Shown: piece by piece, positions 22,254 to 31,487 of the stretch
Layout of the letters: each line of letters starts with the position of its first letter
How positions within the stretch are numbered: position 1 is the stretch's first letter
Virus record (IMG/VR): IMGVR_UViG_3300043567_000596
Coordinates: 1-41,527 of that record
Source: a virus
Length of the DNA: 41,527 nt
Direction: 5' to 3' (one strand)
Translations under genes and position numbers: made by a program
Notes under the pieces: generated by a model
The model's database searches: none
Seen by the model: the letters and a program-made list of their open reading frames with translations, nothing else
Told to the model about the DNA's origin: nothing

Positions 22254-22325
22254 CGTGGAGTAGAGCAGTGGTAGCTCGCTAGGCTCATAACCTAGAGGTC
22301 GGTGGTTCGAACCCATCCTCCGCAA
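22254..22325 (+). tRNA. tRNA-fMet (CAT), initiator
   Basis: Cloverleaf with acceptor CGTGGAG/CTCCGCA. The first pair is C1-A72, a mismatch that marks initiator tRNAs and blocks elongation use. The D arm GAGC..GCTC and anticodon loop CTCATAA match E. coli initiator tRNA closely. The anticodon stem has only two of the usual three G-C pairs. CCA is not encoded. Confidence 0.9.
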
Positions 22326-22331
22326 CAAAAA

Positions 22332-22423
22332 CTATCATAGTGGTATCTGATACTGACAGCTCTATGGGAGTGATGGGTGTGAAAGCAGATTGAAAAGGCT
22401 ACAACGTAAACCCACTATGATAG
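22332..22423 (+). ncRNA. Structured RNA closed by a perfect 12-bp stem
   Basis: CTATCATAGTGG (22332-22343) is the exact reverse complement of CCACTATGATAG (22412-22423), enclosing 68 nt. It starts six bases after the initiator tRNA and so should be made from the same promoter. The interior can form CTC-TATGG-GAG, but no tRNA features (T loop or anticodon arm) are seen. No ORF of note is present. Unknown RNA; possibly a processed small RNA. Confidence 0.55.
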
Positions 22424-22447
22424 ATTGAAAAATATTTACAAATAAAC

Positions 22448-22484
22448 TAGGAAATGTGAAAATGTTTTCGTATATTTGTAAAAC
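22448..22484 (+). promoter_or_regulatory. Promoter in 37-bp direct repeat, copy 1
   Basis: The -7 box TATATTTG is at 22471-22478, preceded by TTTTCG. The -33 position reads CTAG instead of TTTG. The whole 37-bp stretch (22448-22484) recurs without change at 22610-22646. The downstream unit is the small RNA at 22489. Confidence 0.75.
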
Positions 22485-22488
22485 AAAA

Positions 22489-22585
22489 TGAGAGAGTGGT
22501 TGAAGCCATCATCTAATAAAACCGAATGAGTGACCACTTCCTTATGGTAAGGGGGTTAATAAAGCCGGATACCCCTCTCACTTTT
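22489..22585 (+). ncRNA. Small four-way-junction RNA with own promoter and terminator
   Basis: The helices tile the RNA almost without gaps: closing stem TGAGAG/CTCTCA (22489-22494 with 22575-22580), arm AGTGGT/ACCACT (22495-22500 with 22533-22538), hairpin CCTTA-TGG-TAAGG (22540-22552), and arm GGGT/ACCC (22553-22556 with 22571-22574). This is a cloverleaf-like junction but has no T loop or anticodon signature. CTTTTT follows the closing stem, so the stem can also act as terminator. Function unknown. Confidence 0.6.
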
Positions 22586-22609
22586 TGTAAAAAAAAGTTT
22601 TAAAAATAA

Positions 22610-22646
22610 TAGGAAATGTGAAAATGTTTTCGTATATTTGTAAAAC
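22610..22646 (+). promoter_or_regulatory. Promoter in 37-bp direct repeat, copy 2
   Basis: Identical to 22448-22484, with TATATTTG at 22633-22640. It is the closest promoter upstream of the large RNA candidate, so it probably drives 22650 onward. Confidence 0.75.
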
Positions 22647-22654
22647 TAAATCGC

Positions 22655-22722
22655 ACTACCGATTCAATGTGAGAGTAGTATAAACAGAGTATCCTTAACC
22701 GGACATAAGTTTGGCTCACATT
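22655..22722 (+). ncRNA. Structured leader RNA, possible pseudoknot
   Basis: AATGTGAG (22666-22673) pairs with CTCACATT (22715-22722), 8 bp perfect. ACTAC (22655-22659) can pair with GTAGT (22675-22679), which interleaves with the first helix and would form a pseudoknot if both coexist. Inside, CTTA/TAAG (22694/22706) forms a small hairpin. It lies between promoter copy 2 and the boxA at 22729. Confidence 0.5.
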
Positions 22723-22728
22723 AAATAA

Positions 22729-22738
22729 GTTCTTTAAA
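22729..22738 (+). promoter_or_regulatory. boxA-like element before large RNA
   Basis: GTTCTTTAAA, as at 22237. Its place directly before about 880 nt of untranslated sequence fits a need to prevent Rho-dependent termination. Confidence 0.5.
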
Positions 22739-22739
22739 T

Positions 22740-23620
22740 TAATGAAATAATTTCTATAAAGTAACCTAGTGTTACACAATAGAGTGGCCGCATATGGTCG
22801 TTAAATAAACTTCGAAAGAAGGATAAAGTGGGTGTACTAAGTGGTACATCTGCGGCTCCTCCCATAAGGGAGATGAGCTCGAGTATGCAAGTGAGATATC
22901 ATTTTGGCTTTGTAGGTGGGGGTAACACTATCATCGAAGAGTTGAAATGACTGAGCAACTGTAGATTGTTCAGTTGAGGTGGGAACACCAATAAGAATAA
23001 CTCATAGAATTTATGTAAGAAGTATGAACTTAATCCCTTCATATCATTGCGTGATTCAATACCAAAGTGGTCTTAACATCAAATTGGGGAAACCCCTTAA
23101 GATAAGACTGTGTACAGGTGGTGCTGTTACTATCCTTTTATAATGTGTACCAACACTTATAAATGAAGATGACTTGAAGTATGGTGGTAGGGATATCACA
23201 TCGAGTAGTATAGTATTCCGTTGTTCAAAAGATAACGGAGCTGGTGGTAAACCACTACTTGAATAATTCTACAAACTAAAACTCAATTTGATTTGGACAT
23301 CAAAATTCAATTAAAATTAAGAAAAAGTGTTTACCAGTTGCAGACGAAAGGTGTCTACATAGTAATGAGTTGTTCATTGCCACAAACCTCCTCAAGGGGA
23401 ATGTGATTCATCTGAAAGGTTTCTAACACCGCGAGGTGCTAATCTGCTCGGCAGGGTAGAAGAAAATAAGTACGATGAGAGTAGTTTGTAACTTTAAGAT
23501 TGATAATCTATAAACATCGACATTGAATTGGTACTTCTCAAAAGGAAGTGGAAACGAAAGGAAACAATAATCTTTCTAAAGCTGGTTCGCAATATGGAGT
23601 ATTCTCATCCTTATTTTTTT
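22740..23620 (+). ncRNA. Large ornate non-coding RNA candidate (GOLLD/ROOL-like in setting)
   Basis: About 880 nt with no convincing reading frame and dense helices: GTAAC/GTTAC (22761/22771), GCCGCA/TGCGGC (22787/22851) enclosing CTTC-GAAA-GAAG and TGTAC/GTACA, CTCCC-ATAA-GGGAG (22859), CTGAGCAA/TTGTTCAG (22951/22966), GGTG-GGAA-CACC (22978), GTCTTA/TAAGAC (23070/23103) around GGGG-AAA-CCCC, TCCGTT/AACGGA (23217/23234), GTGG-TAAA-CCAC (23244), CACC-GCGA-GGTG (23427), CTGC-TCG-GCAG (23444), AGATT/AATCT (23497/23505). GATGAGAGTA (23474) pairs with TATTCTCATC (23600), followed by TTATTTTTTT, a terminator. Several loops are GNRA type. GOLLD and ROOL are long phage RNAs found beside tRNAs; membership is inferred from setting and form only. 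Confidence 0.65.
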
Positions 23621-23660
23621 ATCATAATGGTTAGAGTTGGTTCGATTCCAATAATGATAG
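23620..23660 (+). ncRNA. Minimal tRNA-like hairpin without anticodon arm
   Basis: A T arm is plain: GTTGG, loop TTCGATT, CCAAT (23636-23652). Around it TATCAT (23620-23625) pairs with ATGATA (23654-23659) like an acceptor stem, followed by GCA. Between acceptor and T arm only ATGGTTAGA remains, similar to a D loop; there is no anticodon arm. It could be a tRNA relic or an acceptor/T-arm mimic that tRNA-binding enzymes recognise. Confidence 0.5.
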
Positions 23661-23667
23661 CAGTGAG

Positions 23668-23742
23668 AAGTAATTTATCGAGGCTTATATTAACCGGAGC
23701 ATGACTTGACGTGGCGTATTTTGAAGATGAATTACTTTTTTT
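23668..23742 (+). ncRNA. Hairpin-closed RNA with terminator
   Basis: AAGTAATTTATC (23668-23679) pairs with GATGAATTACTT (23726-23737), 12 bp with one G-U, followed by seven T. The 46-nt interior has no coding potential. The strong stem and U tract make it a terminator; the long loop suggests it is the 3' end of a distinct RNA. Confidence 0.6.
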
Positions 23743-23777
23743 ATTTAAAACAAAAATATTAGATACTTATATTAACA

Positions 23778-23870
23778 ATGAGAACATCTTTAACACATAC
23801 AACTTATAGCCAACCGAATCTAATTTGGGAAGGCCGTTGTGCGCTGTTAGAGGATACTGATGTAGGATAA
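23778..23870 (+). CDS. Possible 30-residue peptide
   Basis: ATG 23778 to TAA 23868-23870, preceded by the A/T leader TATATTAACA. The peptide begins MRTSLTHTTYSQPNLIWEG. It is the only reading frame worth noting in the 1.55-kb gene-poor stretch and is followed by a terminator after 27 nt. It could equally be chance; no promoter of the usual type is visible. Confidence 0.25.
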   Translation: MRTSLTHTTYSQPNLIWEGRCALLEDTDVG

Positions 23871-23897
23871 AATGTAAATAACATTTGAATTATATAA

Positions 23898-23928
23898 ACC
23901 CTCTAACCCAAAAGTTAGGGGGTTTTTT
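23898..23928 (+). terminator. Intrinsic terminator
   Basis: ACCCTCTAAC (23898-23907) and GTTAGGGGGT (23914-23923) form 10 bp with one G-U, followed by six T. It lies only six bases before tRNA-Asn, so the tRNAs beyond need antitermination, read-through or a promoter I do not see. Confidence 0.8.
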
Positions 23929-23933
23929 GTTTT

Positions 23934-24005
23934 GGGGAATTAGCTCAGCGGTAGAGCAATAGACTGTTAATCTATTGGTCGATGGTTCGAATCCATCATT
24001 CCCCT
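23934..24005 (+). tRNA. tRNA-Asn (GTT)
   Basis: Acceptor GGGGAAT/ATTCCCC, D arm GCTC..GAGC, anticodon loop CTGTTAA, T arm GATGG-TTCGAAT-CCATC. A complete cloverleaf without encoded CCA. Confidence 0.95.
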
Positions 24006-24011
24006 CTGTTG

Positions 24012-24022
24012 GTTCTTTGACA
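24012..24022 (+). promoter_or_regulatory. boxA-like element between tRNAs
   Basis: GTTCTTTGACA, the best boxA match in the window and similar to bacterial rRNA leader sequences. It sits between tRNA-Asn and tRNA-Tyr. Confidence 0.5.
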
Positions 24023-24033
24023 TTATGGGAAAT

Positions 24034-24113
24034 GCCTGTATCGCATAGCGGCAATTGCGGCTGACTGTAAATCAGCTCCTTCGGGTTCGGTGGTTCGAGT
24101 CCATCTGCAGGCA
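24034..24113 (+). tRNA. tRNA-Tyr (GTA)
   Basis: Acceptor GCCTGTA/TGCAGGC with one G-U, anticodon loop CTGTAAA, a long variable arm as expected for bacterial tRNA-Tyr, and T loop TTCGAGT. Discriminator A. Confidence 0.9.
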
Positions 24114-24119
24114 CAATAT

Positions 24120-24195
24120 AGGGTAATAGAGGAGTACGGTTTATCTCGCTTCGTTTGGGACGAAGAGTACGCAGGTTCGAATCCTGCTTACCCTA
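24120..24195 (+). tRNA. tRNA-Pro (TGG)
   Basis: Acceptor AGGGTAA/TTACCCT is perfect. The anticodon stem CTTCG/CGAAG encloses TTTGGGA, giving TGG. T arm GCAGG-TTCGAAT-CCTGC. Discriminator A. Confidence 0.9.
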
Positions 24196-24200
24196 CAAAC

Positions 24201-24271
24201 ATCTCTTTGGTGCAATGGTAGCATATCGGTCTCCAAAACCGCAGATAAAGGTTCGAATCCTTTAGGGGGTG
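24201..24271 (+). tRNA. tRNA-Trp (CCA)
   Basis: Acceptor ATCTCTT/AGGGGGT uses three U-G pairs. Anticodon loop CTCCAAA in a CGGT/ACCG stem, T arm AAAGG-TTCGAAT-CCTTT, discriminator G. Confidence 0.85.
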
Positions 24272-24276
24272 CAAAT

Positions 24277-24348
24277 AGTTCTTTGGTGTAACGGATAGCA
24301 CGAAACGCTACGGACGTTTTAGTAAAGGTTCGAATCCTTTAGGAACTA
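24277..24348 (+). tRNA. tRNA-Arg (ACG)
   Basis: Acceptor AGTTCTT/AGGAACT with one U-G pair, anticodon loop CTACGGA in AAACG/CGTTT, T arm AAAGG-TTCGAAT-CCTTT identical to the tRNA-Trp next to it. A34 would need deamination to inosine by host TadA. Confidence 0.9.
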
Positions 24349-24353
24349 CAAAT

Positions 24354-24435
24354 ACCCGAATGGTGGAATTGGTAGACACAGCGGTCTTAGAAGCCGTGGC
24401 CGAAAGGCTTGAGAGTTCGAGTCTCTCTTTGGGTA
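24354..24435 (+). tRNA. tRNA-Leu (TAG)
   Basis: Class II tRNA: acceptor ACCCGAA/TTTGGGT, Leu-type D loop, anticodon loop CTTAGAA in GCGGT/GCCGT, variable arm with GGCCGAAAGGCT, T loop TTCGAGT. Confidence 0.92.
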
Positions 24436-24459
24436 CATTAAAAATAAATAAGAAAATGC

Positions 24460-24490
24460 TTGACTTTTAATGCAAAATGTATTACCTTTA
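24460..24490 (+). promoter_or_regulatory. Extended phage promoter, copy C
   Basis: TTG (24460-24462), 20 nt, TACCTTTA (24483-24490), followed by CTATGTAATAAGAG and then AAAGATAAAAGAT before the ATG. It shares AAAATGCTTG with copies A and B. It starts a protein gene inside the tRNA array. Confidence 0.8.
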
Positions 24491-24525
24491 CTATGTAATA
24501 AGAGTTAAACATAAAGATAAAAGAT

Positions 24526-24747
24526 ATGAATAGTTTACCCAATTTGGCTTTGATGAGTGTTAATGAGTATTGTGACTTCTTAGTGAGTCGTGCGATGCAT
24601 TTGCGTGTTTCTCCATTTGAGTTGAATATGGAGTATTGCTTTGAGATGGGTGCTATTAGTGATGAGAGATATGAGAGGGCGAAGTGGGAGATGAATGCCA
24701 GAAGAAATGATTCATTCTGGTTAGAACGTGGTGAGGTAGTTAGATAA
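24526..24747 (+). CDS. Small hypothetical protein
   Basis: 73 residues, helical, with Trp and Arg near the C terminus (ERAKWEMNARRND). Begins 36 nt after the -7 box of promoter copy C. No family recognised. Confidence 0.65.
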   Translation: MNSLPNLALMSVNEYCDFLVSRAMHLRVSPFELNMEYCFEMGAISDERYERAKWEMNARRNDSFWLERGEVVR

Positions 24748-24777
24748 TTAAATTATAAACCTTAAAATATAAAAGTT

Positions 24778-25044
24778 ATGAACATTACATGGTTAGAAGA
24801 CAAAACGTTAAGTACTTTCATTAGTTGTTTATATGCGGAACCTGGTTATTCAGATGTTGATGTAAACGATTTGAGTGAAGAAATGGGCATCCCAACAAAA
24901 ACAATCAGAGGAGCATTAGGTTCATTAGTTAAGAAAGGAATCATCACCGTAGAAAGAAACGATAGTGGATATGATATTATCTACTTAAACAAAAACTATT
25001 GGGGAATGGTTAATGAGAATTGGGCTGAAGCGGCTAAAGAATAG
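24778..25044 (+). CDS. Winged-helix DNA-binding protein (predicted)
   Basis: 88 residues. The layout helix (DVNDLSEEMGIP), helix (TKTIRGALGSLVKKGII), then a two-strand wing (TVERNDSGYDIIYLN) is that of winged helix-turn-helix regulators such as MarR- or ArsR-like domains. It may control phage or host promoters; the target is unknown. The A/T leader CCTTAAAATATAAAAGTT precedes the start. tRNA-His starts ten bases after its stop. Confidence 0.65.
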   Translation: MNITWLEDKTLSTFISCLYAEPGYSDVDVNDLSEEMGIPTKTIRGALGSLVKKGIITVERNDSGYDIIYLNKNYWGMVNENWAEAAKE

Positions 25045-25053
25045 GATTAAAAC

Positions 25054-25127
25054 GGTGTTTATAGTGTTAATGGTTAGCACATCAGATTGTGGTTCTGCTA
25101 GTATGGGTTCGAATCCCATTAATCACC
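25054..25127 (+). tRNA. tRNA-His (GTG)
   Basis: Has the His hallmark G(-1) opposite C73. Acceptor GTGTTTA/TAATCAC has one U-U mismatch. Anticodon loop TTGTGGT in CAGA/TCTG; T arm ATGGG-TTCGAAT-CCCAT. Confidence 0.88.
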
Positions 25128-25132
25128 CCAAT

Positions 25133-25217
25133 GGAGAGTTGCCTGAGCGGTTAAAGGAGCAGTTTGCTAAACTGTCATCGAGTAATCGGTGCATTGGTTC
25201 GAATCCAATACTCTCCG
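25133..25217 (+). tRNA. tRNA-Ser (GCT)
   Basis: Class II: acceptor GGAGAGT/ACTCTCC perfect, anticodon loop TTGCTAA, long variable arm, T arm ATTGG-TTCGAAT-CCAAT, discriminator G. Confidence 0.93.
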
Positions 25218-25236
25218 CAAAATAAATGAGAAAATA

Positions 25237-25268
25237 TTAGGTTATATCAATGTTTTTTCGTATCTTTG
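25237..25268 (+). promoter_or_regulatory. Bacteroidota-type promoter
   Basis: TATCTTTG (25261-25268) preceded by TTTTTTCG. The -33 site reads TTAG (25237-25240), one base off. The ATG at 25276 is seven bases after the -7 box. Confidence 0.65.
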
Positions 25269-25275
25269 TAAAGTT

Positions 25276-25674
25276 ATGATAATAAAAAATTGGGATAAGT
25301 TAAGGTATAAAAGTGTATTCATTAGTGGAGCAGGTTTATCTATATCCTCTACACATCAGGATAAGGATGATTTCTATGTATTAGAAATGGATGATTCTGA
25401 AAATATCGGAAACACTTTATTGAGGGTAACATTACAGGCAAAGGATACAGAGTTTTGGATGACCGCATATATAGTTCCAACACAGATTACTCCTAATATC
25501 AAAAGGATATTTCGTAGGAAGGATATGTGGGATATGAATCAGTTTCTTAGAAAAGTATGCGAAGAGTTACATAAGAATAGTATGGTTGATAGTTATTTGA
25601 GATTAATAGCGGAAATACAAAAGTTAAAACATAAAGCTACATTTAATAGTAGTTCTATCAGTTTACCTTTTTAA
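25276..25674 (+). CDS. Hypothetical protein within tRNA array
   Basis: 132 residues from ATG 25276; the longer frame from 25189 would run through tRNA-Ser and the promoter and is rejected. The first half is beta-rich (KSVFISGAGLSIS, FYVLEMDDSE) and the second helical. No family recognised. tRNA-Glu starts four bases after the stop. Confidence 0.65.
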   Translation: MIIKNWDKLRYKSVFISGAGLSISSTHQDKDDFYVLEMDDSENIGNTLLRVTLQAKDTEFWMTAYIVPTQITPNIKRIFRRKDMWDMNQFLRKVCEELHKNSMVDSYLRLIAEIQKLKHKATFNSSSISLPF

Positions 25675-25678
25675 AAAC

Positions 25679-25750
25679 GCTCAGTTCGACTAAGGGTTAG
25701 GTCACATCCCTTTCACGGATGTAATACGGGTTCGAATCCCGTACTGAGTA
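25679..25750 (+). tRNA. tRNA-Glu (TTC)
   Basis: Acceptor GCTCAGT/ACTGAGT, anticodon loop CTTTCAC in CATCC/GGATG, T arm ACGGG-TTCGAAT-CCCGT. Discriminator A is less usual for Glu. Confidence 0.88.
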
Positions 25751-25756
25751 CAATAA

Positions 25757-25830
25757 GCCTCCTTAGCTCAGTTGGCCAGAGCTCCTGATTTGTAATCAGG
25801 TGGTCGTTGGTTCGAATCCGACAGGAGGCT
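25757..25830 (+). tRNA. tRNA-Thr (TGT)
   Basis: Acceptor GCCTCCT/AGGAGGC perfect, D arm GCTC..GAGC, anticodon loop TTTGTAA in CCTGA/TCAGG, T loop TTCGAAT. Confidence 0.95.
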
Positions 25831-25835
25831 CATTT

Positions 25836-25909
25836 GGAGTGTTAGTTCAGTTGGTTAGAATGCATCCCTGTCACGGATGAGGTCATGGGTTCGAGTCCCA
25901 TACATTCCG
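25836..25909 (+). tRNA. tRNA-Asp (GTC)
   Basis: Acceptor GGAGTGT/ACATTCC with one G-U, anticodon loop CTGTCAC in CATCC/GGATG, T arm ATGGG-TTCGAGT-CCCAT, discriminator G. Confidence 0.94.
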
Positions 25910-25913
25910 CAAT

Positions 25914-25990
<77 letters not shown>

Positions 25991-26001
25991 AAAAATATGT
26001 T

Positions 26002-26427
26002 ATGAAAATTATGAATATAAGTGCAATTTTATCTTTTATATTATTTATCCTACCAATGGAAATTGATATGATGGAGAAAAAAATAGAAATGGAGATTAAA
26101 GATATAATACCTGATATTGTTACGGTGACAACTTATTCACCTACGATAGAGCAAACAGATAGTACACCTTTAGTTACCGCAAGTGGTTTCAAAATCAATC
26201 CTAATAATCCAAAGAAACAAAGAATAGTTGCGGTTAGTAGAGATTTAAAAAAGAAGTATAAGTTTGGTAAGAAAATAAGAATTACAGGCATCGGTAAACT
26301 TAGTGGTACTTATACTATAAGAGATGTGATGAATAAGAGATATAAAAAAAGAGTTGATATCTTAATTGGTGAGGATGATAAACAAACATCATTTAAGAAC
26401 GCAAAACTTTACGCAGTTGTAAAGTAA
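26002..26427 (+). CDS. 3D-domain (double-psi beta-barrel) protein, exported
   Basis: 141 residues. The start (MKIMNISAILSFILFILPM) is a signal peptide or anchor. The C-terminal 100 residues match the 3D domain found in lytic transglycosylase-like proteins: VTTYSP at the start, IVAVSRDL in the middle, and GTYTIRDVMNKRYKKRVDIL, which carries the Asp residues naming the domain. Such domains bind or cleave peptidoglycan, so a role in lysis or cell-wall entry is likely. It is read from within the tRNA array, 11 bases after tRNA-Arg. Confidence 0.8.
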   Translation: MKIMNISAILSFILFILPMEIDMMEKKIEMEIKDIIPDIVTVTTYSPTIEQTDSTPLVTASGFKINPNNPKKQRIVAVSRDLKKKYKFGKKIRITGIGKLSGTYTIRDVMNKRYKKRVDILIGEDDKQTSFKNAKLYAVVK

Positions 26428-26433
26428 TAAAAT

Positions 26434-26516
26434 GCCGGAGTGATGGAATGGTAGACATGACAGACTTAAAATCTGTTGAGCAATCGCTCGTGTGGGTTCG
26501 ACTCCCATCTCTGGTA
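26434..26516 (+). tRNA. tRNA-Leu (TAA)
   Basis: Class II: acceptor GCCGGAG/CTCTGGT with two wobble pairs, anticodon loop CTTAAAA in CAGA/TCTG, variable arm GAGCAATCGCTC, T arm GTGGG-TTCGACT-CCCAT. Confidence 0.92.
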
Positions 26517-26545
26517 CGTTTCTTTTTTTAATCTTAACAATATAG

Positions 26546-26656
26546 GCCGGAGTGGCGGAAAGAATGGGAAGTACAACCATTAGACGTTCCCGAACTAGGA
26601 AGGGTGGTGAATCCGAAATGGACACCGTGTGGGTAATCAATCCCTCCTCCGGCACC
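26546..26656 (+). tRNA. Aberrant tRNA-like RNA (acceptor intact, interior rearranged)
   Basis: A perfect 7-bp acceptor GCCGGAG/CTCCGGC with discriminator A and CC is present, and the start GCCGGAGTGGCGGAA is that of a Leu tRNA. The interior is not: helices TTCC/GGAA (26587/26598, loop CGAACTA without U33), GGTG/CACC (26606/26623) with inner TCC/GGA, and GGG/CCC (26631/26642) with loop TAATCAAT instead of TTCGAAT. No anticodon can be assigned. It may be a decayed tRNA, one with an insertion, or a tRNA mimic. Confidence 0.5.
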
Positions 26657-26661
26657 TTATT

Positions 26662-26735
26662 GGACTTGTAGCTCAGACGGTTAGAGCGGCGGCCTCATAA
26701 GCCGAAGGTCATAGGTTCGATTCCTATCTGGTCCA
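26662..26735 (+). tRNA. tRNA with CAT anticodon (Met elongator or Ile2)
   Basis: Acceptor GGACTTG/CTGGTCC with one U-U mismatch, anticodon loop CTCATAA in CGGC/GCCG, T arm ATAGG-TTCGATT-CCTAT. It lacks the initiator C1-A72 mismatch. If C34 is modified to lysidine it would read AUA, a frequent codon in this phage. Confidence 0.9.
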
Positions 26736-26747
26736 CAGTGGGCATCC

Positions 26748-26794
26748 GGTGGAGTGCCGAAAGGAAGATAGATGTTTTCTATCCACCATTTTTT
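26748..26794 (+). terminator. Two-tier hairpin with U tract
   Basis: GATAGA-TGTTT-TCTATC (26767-26783) is a 6-bp hairpin followed by CACCATTTTTT. The alternative outer stem GGTGGA/TCCACC (26748/26782) overlaps it, so two folds compete. It lies between tRNA-Met/Ile and tRNA-Gly and could be a terminator or a processing signal. Confidence 0.45.
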
Positions 26795-26796
26795 AA

Positions 26797-26868
26797 GCAG
26801 ATGTCGTATAATGGCCATTACTCCTTCCTTCCAAGTAGGAGACGGAGGTTCGATTCCTCTCATCTGCT
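26797..26868 (+). tRNA. tRNA-Gly (TCC)
   Basis: Acceptor GCAGATG/CATCTGC perfect, anticodon loop CTTCCAA in CCTTC/GTAGG with one mismatch, T arm GGAGG-TTCGATT-CCTCT, discriminator T as usual for Gly. Confidence 0.88.
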
Positions 26869-26873
26869 CAAAT

Positions 26874-26944
26874 TGTTCGGTGGTGTAACGGTAGCACAAC
26901 TGTTTTTGGTGCAGTTAGTTCTGGTTCGAATCCAGCCCGAATAA
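26874..26944 (+). tRNA. tRNA-Gln (TTG)
   Basis: Acceptor TGTTCGG/CCGAATA with weak U1-A72 pair typical of Gln, anticodon loop TTTTGGT in ACTGT/GCAGT, T loop TTCGAAT. Confidence 0.92.
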
Positions 26945-26952
26945 CAAAAAGA

Positions 26953-26984
26953 TTTGATAATATGAAATAATTATCGTATCTTTA
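26953..26984 (+). promoter_or_regulatory. Bacteroidota-type promoter
   Basis: TTTG (26953-26956), 20 nt, TATCTTTA (26977-26984). It drives the small membrane protein gene at 27006 and possibly the tRNAs after it. Confidence 0.75.
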
Positions 26985-27005
26985 CTTAAATTAAAATTAA
27001 AAGTT

Positions 27006-27263
27006 ATGTTTTGGACGTATTATGTTATTTGCGCTATTTATTGTTTCTATCAGTTATTTACAAAATATCAAGAAAGATACAATGATGGTATGATTGGATT
27101 AAATCCTGGTTTGGATGCTATTATGGTTGTTGCTTTAGCTTGGTTATTAGCACCAATTGATTTTGGTATGACTTGGATTCGTTGGTATAAAGATGCAGAG
27201 CAAGCAAGAATAAATCAAAGTAAATTTGATATTAAAATAGATAAAGACGATAATATATTTTAA
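27006..27263 (+). CDS. Small membrane protein
   Basis: 85 residues, two hydrophobic stretches (about 1-19 and 37-55) around an Asn/Gly-rich loop, then a charged C-terminal tail (FDIKIDKDD). No family recognised. It is flanked on both sides by tRNAs. Confidence 0.65.
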
Positions 27264-27270
27264 TATCAAC

Positions 27271-27355
27271 GGAGAAATGGCAGAGTGGTTGAATGCACCG
27301 GTCTTGAAAACCGGCATACTGAAAGGTATCTGGGGTTCGAATCCCTGTTTCTCCG
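27271..27355 (+). tRNA. tRNA-Ser (TGA)
   Basis: Class II: acceptor GGAGAAA/TTTCTCC perfect, anticodon loop CTTGAAA in CCGGT/ACCGG, variable arm, T loop TTCGAAT, discriminator G. Confidence 0.95.
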
Positions 27356-27360
27356 CACAT

Positions 27361-29077: not shown

Positions 29078-29731
29078 ATGAAAATAAACTTAAATAAAGG
29101 GCAAAAATTGTGGTTCACTAGTGATACACACTATAATCACGGAAACATTTGTAGTTCAACAACACAATGGACTAATCCTGTAACATTAAGGGATTTTAAA
29201 TCATTAGAACATATGAACGCAACATTGGTAGGTAATATCAATGAAGTGGTTGGACAAGATGATATTTTATTTCACTTAGGTGATTGGAGTTTTGGTGGAT
29301 TTGAACAAATAGAATTATTCAGAAACCAAATTGTATGTAAGAATGTTCACATCATTACAGGTAACCACGACCATCACATTGAAAACAATAGAGATGGTTG
29401 TCAATCCTTATTCAGTTCCGTAAACAAATATTTAAACTTAAATGTTAAATGGAATGTAGGAACTCCTTTGATGGGAGAACAGCGATTCGCTCTAATGCAC
29501 TTTCCAATAGCAAGTTGGGATAATATGGCTAGAGGAGCAATTCATTTGCATGGGCATGTTCACTTTGAGCCTGATGTTAGAATTGGTAAAGGTAAGATGA
29601 TGGATGTTGGATGCGAGGGTAACAACTTATACCCAATTGATATGAATGAGGTATTAAGATTAATGGATAAGCAACCAATCAAAGGTATGTTCGAATCCGA
29701 CCATCATGAAATTGTAGAAAATTATAAATAA
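29078..29731 (+). CDS. Calcineurin-like metallophosphoesterase
   Basis: 217 residues. The metal-site motifs are all present: SDTHYNH (DxH), FHLGDWSF (GD), ITGNHDHH (GNHD) and LHGHVH (GHxH). Related phage enzymes hydrolyse phosphomono- or diesters, and some repair RNA 2',3'-cyclic ends. It is coupled by TAATG to a P-loop kinase, followed by a small gene and then RNA ligase, so RNA end processing is a reasonable guess. Confidence 0.9.
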   Translation: MKINLNKGQKLWFTSDTHYNHGNICSSTTQWTNPVTLRDFKSLEHMNATLVGNINEVVGQDDILFHLGDWSFGGFEQIELFRNQIVCKNVHIITGNHDHHIENNRDGCQSLFSSVNKYLNLNVKWNVGTPLMGEQRFALMHFPIASWDNMARGAIHLHGHVHFEPDVRIGKGKMMDVGCEGNNLYPIDMNEVLRLMDKQPIKGMFESDHHEIVENYK

Positions 29732-30129
29732 TGAAAGAGTTATTCTTATTGAGAGGATTACCAGGAAGTGGTAAAAGTACATTAGCTAAATCATTGGATG
29801 GTATCCATGTAGAAGCCGACCAATTCTTTATGGTAGGTGGTGAATATAAATTTGATGCTAGTAAATTAAAGGAGGCACATAATAGCTGCCTGACACGAGT
29901 AAAATCTTATATGTACATTTTCAGCGGTAATCCAAAATCAGAGAGGATTATAGTATCAAATACATTTACACAAGAATGGGAAATGAAACCTTACTTCGAT
30001 ATAGCAAATGAATATGGATACAGAGTATATTCAATCATCGTAGAGAATAGGCATGGTGGAGTAAATGAGCACGGAGTACCTTCTGATAAATTAGAACAAA
30101 TGAAAAACAGATTTAATATAAAATTATGA
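29731..30129 (+). CDS. P-loop kinase, polynucleotide-kinase-like
   Basis: 132 residues. Walker A is RGLPGSGKST at residues 6-15; HVEADQFF follows with the Asp typical of PNK-like kinases. IVSNTFTQEWEM resembles the segment found in N4BP2-type AAA kinases. It has no phosphatase domain and may act with the metallophosphoesterase before it. Ends in an ATGA overlap with a small gene. Confidence 0.8.
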   Translation: MKELFLLRGLPGSGKSTLAKSLDGIHVEADQFFMVGGEYKFDASKLKEAHNSCLTRVKSYMYIFSGNPKSERIIVSNTFTQEWEMKPYFDIANEYGYRVYSIIVENRHGGVNEHGVPSDKLEQMKNRFNIKL

Positions 30130-30278
30130 TAAAAAGAAAATTAGAATCCGATAGTAGGATGCGATTCCTATTAGGTAACAACCCTATGGGTGAGTTAGTT
30201 AGGATATTCAAAGAGATTTGGTTAGGATTTAAAATAGCAGAACAAAATAGAGATAAATCCCAATGGGGTAAATTTTAA
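30126..30278 (+). CDS. Small basic protein between kinase and ligase
   Basis: 50 residues, ATGA overlap with the kinase and only three bases before the ligase start. It begins MIKRKLESDSRMRFLLGNN and contains a hydrophobic-basic helix. The coupling on both sides suggests it belongs to the RNA-repair unit. No known family. Confidence 0.6.
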   Translation: MIKRKLESDSRMRFLLGNNPMGELVRIFKEIWLGFKIAEQNRDKSQWGKF

Positions 30279-30281
30279 TAT

Positions 30282-31487
30282 ATGAAATACGATTTAGGTA
30301 TATTGAATGATTACATAGAAAGGGGATTGGTAATAAAGCAAGTTCACCCAACTTTGCCTTTATCAATCTACAACTATTCACGTTCTTGTCAATATGGACA
30401 GGTGTGGGATGATATTACTTTAAATTGTAGAGGGTTAGTATTAGATAACGAAGGTAATGTAATCGCTAAACCATTCCCTAAATTCTTTAACTACGAAGAA
30501 CATACTGCGGATGAAATTCCAAATGAGTTGTTTGATGTGTATGAGAAGATGGATGGTAGTTTAGGTATATGCTTCTACTATGAAAGAGAATTAACATATA
30601 GTGAAAGGTATAGATTATGGTTCAATGGTAACTATGAAACAGGTATGGAATACTATGAAGGTATTGTTCCTAACTTTGATGACCCATACTTTCATCCTAC
30701 CCCAACAAAAAAGGGTGAGTGGCATATAGCAACGAGAGGTTCATTTGTTTCAGACCAAGCGGTGAAAGGTAAAGAGATGCTGGATAAATTAAATACCAAA
30801 TTCGGATTGATACCTGGATATACTTACTTATTTGAAATCATCTATCCTGAAAATCGAATCGTTGTAGATTATGGTGGAGCTGAAAAATTGGTTGTATTAG
30901 GTTGCTACAATAACGAAACCGGTGAGGAAGGTAATATCGATGAAATGGTTAATGAAGGATTTGAAGTCGTAACTAGATATAATACTTTTGGTGAAGGCTT
31001 TGATGTGTTGAAGAGAGAGATATCAAATTCAAAAGAAGGTTATGTCATTCGTTTCAGAAATGGAATGAGAATGAAAATTAAAGGCGATGAGTATGTTCGA
31101 TTACACAGAATCTTAACTAACTTTTCAACTACTGATATATGGGAGTTGTTAAGCACTAAGGGTAATATGGATGAGTTCTTAGAAAGAGTACCCGATGAGT
31201 TTGATGATTGGGTAAAGAAAGTTACTATGGAGTTGAGATATAGTTTTTTTCATATCAATGAAAGAGCGGGTAAGATACATGATTATTTTAGATATGGAAA
31301 ATACAATGATAGGGAATCCGAACCAACAAAAAAAGAATTTGCTTTACATTTAGAAAAATCTAATGTTGAACCATCCCTTCGTTCAGTATTATTTGCAATG
31401 TGGGATAGTAAGCCTTATGACCATATAATTTGGAAAATGATTAAACCAAAATGGTCAAAACCTTTTAGAAAAGATTTGGATAATTAA
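30282..31487 (+). CDS. T4 Rnl1-like RNA ligase
   Basis: 401 residues. Motif I is YEKMDGSLG with the nucleotidyl-accepting Lys89. An upstream CRGLVLD (Arg50) matches the family. SKEGYVIRF is motif IV and MRMKIKGDEY motif V. T4 RnlA homologues seal 3'-OH to 5'-phosphate RNA ends, classically repairing host tRNA cut by the anticodon nuclease PrrC. With its upstream phosphoesterase and kinase it forms a healing-and-sealing unit. The groES promoter starts within its last codons. Confidence 0.92.
   Translation: MKYDLGILNDYIERGLVIKQVHPTLPLSIYNYSRSCQYGQVWDDITLNCRGLVLDNEGNVIAKPFPKFFNYEEHTADEIPNELFDVYEKMDGSLGICFYYERELTYSERYRLWFNGNYETGMEYYEGIVPNFDDPYFHPTPTKKGEWHIATRGSFVSDQAVKGKEMLDKLNTKFGLIPGYTYLFEIIYPENRIVVDYGGAEKLVVLGCYNNETGEEGNIDEMVNEGFEVVTRYNTFGEGFDVLKREISNSKEGYVIRFRNGMRMKIKGDEYVRLHRILTNFSTTDIWELLSTKGNMDEFLERVPDEFDDWVKKVTMELRYSFFHINERAGKIHDYFRYGKYNDRESEPTKKEFALHLEKSNVEPSLRSVLFAMWDSKPYDHIIWKMIKPKWSKPFRKDLDN

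What the first reader, a model, noticed from the sequence alone, without database searches (positions are those of the whole stretch)
22489..22585. Cloverleaf-like small RNA that is not a tRNA
Four helices abut each other almost without unpaired junction bases: closing 6 bp, 6-bp arm, 5-bp hairpin with triloop, and 4-bp arm. This is the geometry of a four-way junction, yet neither TTCGA nor an anticodon loop is present. It has a dedicated promoter, and its closing stem doubles as terminator. It could mimic tRNA for a nuclease or ribosome factor.
Basis: partly seen in the sequence, partly recalled or inferred. Interest (0 to 1): 0.72.

Follow-up and report, generated by a model that had tools for sequence, protein, structure and literature searches.

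The report
New small RNA family in phages
The sequence encodes a small folded RNA, missing from the RNA catalogue, that many uncultured aquatic phages carry as a single copy beside transfer-RNA genes; its helices drift freely while about 30 unpaired bases never change, so it almost certainly does a specific, still unknown job during infection.

Summary
The RNA at 22489-22585 is real, but its fold is not the one first drawn. It belongs to an RNA family absent from Rfam, with at least 88 distinct members in IMG/VR phage contigs. The supported fold is a long closing helix P1, a 4-bp helix P2 with a 12-13-nt loop, and an optional, very variable hairpin P3. Three strands hardly change: UGAAGCCA, UAAUAAAACCGA and AAAGCCGG. 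All 12 tested P1/P2 pairs carry two-sided changes: 96.6% paired, covariation 0.816 against 0.204 shuffled. A model built only from other phage lineages finds the window at E = 2.6e-14. Each phage carries one copy, at one of several sites: in the tmRNA/initiator-tRNA/GOLLD island, or in operon gaps where a tRNA gene, another structured RNA or a bare hairpin sits in relatives. This favours a trans-acting phage RNA over a leader or tRNA mimic. Its partner is unknown; the company of tmRNA and initiator tRNA suggests translation. It was not found in cultured-phage, plasmid or GTDB collections.

The parts
22254..22326 (+). tRNA-Met with a C1/A72 mismatch (initiator type), first RNA gene of the island
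   Evidence: ARAGORN; acceptor ends C...GCAAC in nearly all island tRNA-Met genes read (the exception, L189, has ends that look shifted), whereas internal tRNA-Met genes (window 26662, L147 4279) begin with G
22327..22428 (+). another probable structured RNA closed by a 15-bp inverted repeat (AAACTATCATAGTGG / CCACTATGATAGATT)
   Evidence: inverted repeat; 90-91% identical copies between tRNA-Met and the RNA in L167, L126 and L179
22450..22478 (+). promoter of the RNA; TATATTTG at 22471-22478
   Evidence: exact second copy at 22612-22640, 0 expected; same kind of motif upstream in 24 members
22484..22587 (+). the RNA: whole core including the extended P1
   Evidence: R2 model (other lineages only) 63.7 bits, E 2.6e-14, single hit in the window
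22484..22500 (+). P1 5' strand CAAAATGAGAGAGTGGT (pairs with 22571-22587, three mismatches)
   Evidence: 9 family pairs, all with two-sided changes, 95.5% of cells paired; constrained fold
22501..22508 (+). junction strand UGAAGCCA
   Evidence: TGAAGCC was demanded by the search pattern; A in 88/88; identical in loci chosen by neighbouring protein
22509..22529 (+). P2 (UCAU/AUGA) with loop C+UAAUAAAACCGA (22513-22525)
   Evidence: 4 bp paired in 88/88 with 12 different helices
22530..22532 (+). GUG linker
   Evidence: GTG in 84, GTA in 4 of 88
22536..22556 (+).
   Evidence: variable region folds as a hairpin in most members, absent in 8 of 88
22561..22570 (+). junction strand AAAGCCGGAU
   Evidence: AAAGCCGG in every member; not demanded by the collection search pattern
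22571..22587 (+). P1 3' strand ACCCCTCTCACTTTTTG
22612..22640 (+). second copy of the promoter, driving the next small RNA
22649..22725 (+). second small RNA of another unnamed family (sRNA2)
   Evidence: relatives in several contigs; 17 stretches in IMG/VR; no Rfam match
22740..23640 (+). GOLLD RNA (Rfam model covers 23201-23611; the homologous 5' part begins about 22740)
   Evidence: 284.3 bits; 5' half aligned to relatives

Best explanation
It is a stand-alone, trans-acting phage RNA of about 65-125 nt. Shown by sequence comparison: P1 ties the ends, P2 presents an invariant 12-nt loop, three invariant single-stranded segments form one core, and P3 is a dispensable, exchangeable ornament. 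Inferred: the core folds into one compact surface that binds a single conserved partner during infection. Because the RNA sits as a block with tmRNA, initiator tRNA and GOLLD, and takes a tRNA gene's place elsewhere, the partner I think most likely belongs to, or works on, the translation machinery. Identity of the partner and the effect on it are not shown.
For: Covariation in all 12 tested P1/P2 pairs. Core identical in 105/105 pairs of 15 loci picked by their gp32 protein, while gp32 third codon positions differ by a median of 37%. One confident copy in each of 32 contigs searched, up to 287 kb. Different sites in different phages, with the neighbouring site filled by something else. Sigma70-type promoter directly after the RNA in L124, L142 and, read by eye, L144, so there it is not the leader of the next gene. 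Own promoter in 24 members, directly behind a tRNA in 10. tmRNA / tRNA-fMet / RNA block.
Against: No expression data. The translation link is guilt by association only. In about 35-40 members the RNA lies 13-30 nt before a gene with a Shine-Dalgarno site, as a cis element would. Interchange with a bare hairpin at the gp32-uvsX and UBL-E2 sites could mean that only a roadblock is needed there. R1 was seeded by an exact-core pattern, so variants with a changed core may be missed.
Confidence: 0.45

Rival explanations
1. Cis-acting mRNA element: a compact knot between genes that blocks exonucleases or directs processing (like exonuclease-resistant RNAs), so that a tRNA, another structured RNA or a plain hairpin can replace it.
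For: At the gp32-uvsX gap and the UBL-E2 gap relatives carry a tRNA, other structured RNAs or a simple GC hairpin in its place, closed by a similar outer stem.
Against: One copy per genome although many transcripts would need such an element; a plain hairpin would not need about 30 invariant unpaired bases; the unit also stands alone behind its own promoter, with the next promoter following within about 25 nt.
Confidence: 0.2
2. RNA sponge or decoy against host defence: the core is an aptamer that binds a signalling nucleotide, a nuclease or a toxin, as phage protein sponges do.
For: Invariant junctions and loop with freely drifting helices look like a ligand-binding aptamer; single copy, no consistent regulated gene; patchy presence between close relatives (19 of 80 gp32 loci) and exchange of P3 between lineages fit an arms race.
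Against: No defence or counter-defence gene is known to be consistently adjacent; ligand unknown; nothing tested.
Confidence: 0.2
3. tRNA mimic for an anticodon nuclease or ribosome factor.
For: Swaps with a tRNA gene and follows tRNA genes; the window phage also has a T4-Rnl1-like RNA ligase and a PNK-like ATPase, the known tRNA repair pair.
Against: No tRNA architecture in any of 89 aligned members; ARAGORN and Rfam tRNA negative.
Confidence: 0.08
4. Small self-cleaving ribozyme of a new class.
For: Compact, long invariant loops, optional peripheral hairpin, varied gene neighbourhoods.
Against: No match to any Rfam ribozyme; sits as a closed unit with few flanking bases to release; the core has more invariant bases than I recall for known small ribozymes (from memory, not tested).
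Confidence: 0.05

Closest known systems
GOLLD RNA (RF02032)
   Same: Phage non-coding RNA in the same tRNA island, unknown function, lies next to this RNA in the window and in 12 of the 13 related GOLLD islands read
   Different: About 800 nt, different sequence and fold; this RNA also occurs in contigs where no GOLLD was found (GOLLD in only 10 of 24 contigs that carry it; contigs are fragments)
tRNA / initiator tRNA (RF00005)
   Same: Short, closed by a terminal helix, same genomic niches, can occupy the same intergenic site
   Different: No D, anticodon or T arm; 8-nt and 10-nt invariant junctions; not recognised as tRNA
Stable 'species 1 and 2' RNAs (RNA C and D) of the T4 tRNA cluster (from memory)
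   Same: Small non-tRNA RNAs of unknown role inside a T4-like tRNA cluster
   Different: No sequence comparison made here; the blastn searches of INPHARED found no convincing relative in any cultured phage
manA RNA (RF01745)
   Same: Structured RNA of marine T4-like phages, near this RNA in L213
   Different: Different family, about 190 nt, classed by Rfam as cis-regulatory
Exonuclease-resistant RNAs and metabolite aptamers (from memory)
   Same: Variable helices around an invariant junction and loop
   Different: No sequence or Rfam relation; no ligand or blocking activity known

Membership tests
tRNA (RF00005) | cloverleaf with D, anticodon and T arms, TTCRA loop | tested here: not met
   ARAGORN, Rfam; comparative fold has P1, P2 and optional P3 only
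GOLLD (RF02032) | match to the 416-position covariance model above gathering score | tested here: not met
   GOLLD matches 23201-23611, not this RNA
any Rfam 15 family, including known riboswitches and small self-cleaving ribozymes | score above the curated cut-off | tested here: not met
   window scanned to E 10 over 22320-23960; 14 loci fetched as relatives and 17 further loci, most of the GOLLD-island ones carrying members, at gathering thresholds
four-way-junction (cloverleaf) RNA as first described | 6-bp arm 22496-22501/22532-22537 and 4-bp arm 22554-22557/22563-22566 kept in relatives | tested here: not met
   55% and 38% of cells paired, covariation at control level
cis-acting leader / riboswitch | consistent downstream gene and expression platform | tested here: inconclusive
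   no consistent downstream gene; in some members a promoter follows the RNA directly; but in about 35-40 members a gene with SD starts 13-30 nt after it
intrinsic-terminator-ended small RNA | U-tract right after the closing stem | tested here: not met
   22 of 88 members only; U5 in the window
self-cleaving ribozyme | site-specific cleavage in Mg2+ | not testable with these tools
   needs an in-vitro transcript
T4 species 1/2 stable RNAs | sequence homology to the T4 RNA C/D genes | not tested
   only indirect: blastn of three members against INPHARED found nothing convincing

The most novel reading that the evidence does not exclude
The RNA is the best-conserved member of a set of interchangeable small structured RNAs (at least this family, sRNA2, sRNA3 and family C) that aquatic phages keep at tRNA-type sites and exchange between lineages; the invariant core is an aptamer that binds a translation factor or a defence signal in trans, and P3 is an exchangeable allele that tunes specificity.
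Probability: 0.25. Interest if true: 0.92.

Novelty: categorically new. Interest (0 to 1): 0.78.

Why it matters
An RNA under such strong selection, present in several phage lineages but missing from Rfam and, as far as searched, from cultured-phage, plasmid and 85,000 prokaryote genome records, points to a widespread RNA-based function in phage infection that has not been described in the sources searched. It also makes the role of GOLLD islands testable: the islands hold tmRNA, initiator tRNA and several small RNAs as a block. 'Categorically new' is meant at the level of the RNA family; no new mechanism is claimed.

Tried and rejected
Single-sequence folding of the window (z -1.6, misleading arms). 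Intrinsic terminator by P1 as a general feature. Dependence on GOLLD (GOLLD found in only 10 of 24 contigs that carry the RNA). Host origin: an exact-core scan of 85,000 prokaryote genomes gave 11 hits, none of which shows AAAGCCGG in the printed sequence, so taken as chance. First exact 17-mer scan: mostly chance hits, one true member (L007). Relatives in cultured phages and plasmids by blastn: none convincing. A pseudoknot CCG/CGG between the P2 loop and AAAGCCGG, a CC/GG pair (RNAalifold) and a run of sheared G.A pairs (UGAA/GGAY) are all possible, but every base involved is invariant or nearly so, so covariation cannot decide. No paper in the held library contains the core string in a phage or RNA context. 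An E-value of R1 on the window is circular (the window is in A1), hence the separate model R2.

Full report
1. What was checked. The window is an IMG/VR virus fragment of 41,527 bases. Bases 22254-27356 hold 18 tRNA genes and a GOLLD RNA (284 bits). The finding lies between an initiator-type tRNA-Met (22254-22326) and GOLLD. On its own the sequence is not a remarkable folder: minimum free energy -26.2 against -21.1 +/- 3.2 for shuffles, z -1.6. The promoter claim holds: a 29-base block ending in TATATTTG precedes the RNA and recurs without a mismatch before a second small RNA 162 bases on; none is expected by chance.

2. Finding relatives without assuming the RNA. Relatives were first fetched through a neighbouring 84-aa protein and the GOLLD model, and the DNA upstream of GOLLD was read. 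A related RNA stands there in 12 of 13 islands; in L094 other small RNAs take its place. Most units begin with a promoter of the same kind. The strands TGAAGCCA, TAATAAAACCGA and AAAGCCGG are the same in those read, whereas the helices and the P3 hairpin differ.

3. How widespread it is. A scan of viral contigs for TGAAGCCN{4,7}TAATAAAACCGA hit its limit at 120 stretches. 88 distinct sequences show the whole architecture, including AAAGCCGG, which the collection pattern did not demand. Of these, 24 have a Bacteroidota-type promoter within 40 nt upstream and 10 follow a tRNA 3' end directly; most of the rest lie in gaps between genes of other phages, above all between a gp32-like single-strand binding protein and UvsX of a marine T4-like clade. 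A cassette ParB / 95-aa protein ('UBL') / 500-aa protein ('E2') / JAB-like protein / 145-aa protein carries it in either of two gaps (the names UBL and E2 are my guesses from sequence motifs, without a Pfam match). In the prokaryote genome collection the same pattern gave 11 hits without the AAAGCCGG strand in the printed stretch, taken as chance. Blastn against INPHARED and PLSDB found no convincing relative. No Rfam 15 family covers the RNA.

4. Structure. On 89 aligned members (A2), 12 pairs of P1 and P2 were counted: 96.6% of cells paired, all 12 pairs with two-sided changes, covariation score 0.816 against 0.204 +/- 0.013 shuffled; sliding the partner by 1 to 3 columns drops it to 0.08-0.20. 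The MAFFT alignment A1, made without a structure, gives the same picture (95.7%, 0.944 against 0.227). P2 is paired over 4 bp in 88 of 88 members with 12 different helices. P3 folds as a hairpin in most members and is absent in 8. A second model (R2), made only from 23 members outside the GOLLD-island phages, finds the window at 63.7 bits, E 2.6e-14, as its only hit there.

5. Constraint. The strong conservation of the core is partly built in by the pattern, so it was tested on loci chosen by their gp32 protein alone. Among 15 such loci the core is identical in all 105 pairs while third codon positions of gp32 differ by a median of 37%. Loci without a model hit were read directly (47 of the 80 intergenic regions were printed): those read hold no visible decayed copy but a tRNA-Ala gene, other structured RNAs, a bare hairpin or a short gap.

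6. Copy number and site. One confident copy was found in each of 32 contigs that carry it, up to 287 kb. The site differs between phages, even between phages that share the same gene cassette. In L124, L142 and L144 a promoter-like sequence follows the RNA directly. GOLLD was found in only 10 of 24 further contigs with the RNA. The larger Bacteroidota-type phages are T4-like by their Gp23 capsid gene. These facts favour a trans-acting RNA. That the partner belongs to translation rests on the company it keeps: tmRNA, initiator tRNA (C1/A72 mismatch in nearly all island genes read, the exception having apparently shifted ends), then this RNA, and on published pull-down of ribosomes with GOLLD as cited in PMC12286853.

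7. P3. The hairpin is exchanged: near-identical phages carry unrelated P3 (L259 and L260: gp32 third positions 5% different, P3 41% identical), and the same or nearly the same P3 occurs at different sites with different P1 (L125/L127, L150/L157, L158/L199, L172/L185). This is unexplained; it may be neutral recombination or selection for specificity.

8. Limits. All contigs are metagenomic fragments; nothing here shows expression. Hosts are inferred from promoter type only. The pattern and models favour the known core. Calibration of the covariance models was short, so E-values are rough.

Noticed in passing
window 22649-22725: A second unnamed small RNA (sRNA2...GTGAGAGTAGTAT..GTATCCTTAAC..) behind an exact copy of the same promoter; pattern found in 17 IMG/VR stretches, relatives in L018, L026, L040.
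   Followed up: partly
L087-L090, L093, L094, L096 upstream of GOLLD: A third small RNA (sRNA3, about 45 nt, core ATAGGTGATGAAAGATACTCGGTA) recurs in the islands; 62 stretches in IMG/VR, two copies in L388.
   Followed up: partly
window 22327-22428: Another probable RNA closed by a 15-bp inverted repeat directly behind the initiator tRNA; about 90% identical copies in L167, L126, L179.
   Followed up: no
L274, L279, L283; L284, L324, L307, L338 (gp32-uvsX gap): Other structured RNAs (families B and C) sit at the site where this RNA or a tRNA-Ala gene stands in relatives; family C pattern in 13 IMG/VR stretches.
   Followed up: partly
L127:1489-1749, L183:8532-8772, L199:4551-4792, L150:8710-8989: Longer structured RNA with the string GGTTGCTCTGA (GGGCACGGTTGCTCT... 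in L127, L183, L199) between the JAB-like and 145-aa genes.
   Followed up: no
L103:4101-4229: P3 of this member appears to contain a second hairpin inserted inside the AAAGAGG..TCTGCTTAT hairpin seen in L150 and L157.
   Followed up: no
L110, L141, L147, L026, L032, L007, L189 and others: Phage tmRNA genes with tag peptides such as DEMSTMTFDSLMDFIGADYAVAA stand upstream of the initiator tRNA, in several cases only a few bases away.
   Followed up: no
L189:4635-4707: ARAGORN reports a tRNA with a four-base anticodon (gtga), a possible frameshift-suppressor tRNA.
   Followed up: no
window 29731-31487: PNK-like ATPase next to a T4-Rnl1-like RNA ligase, the tRNA repair pair of T4.
   Followed up: no
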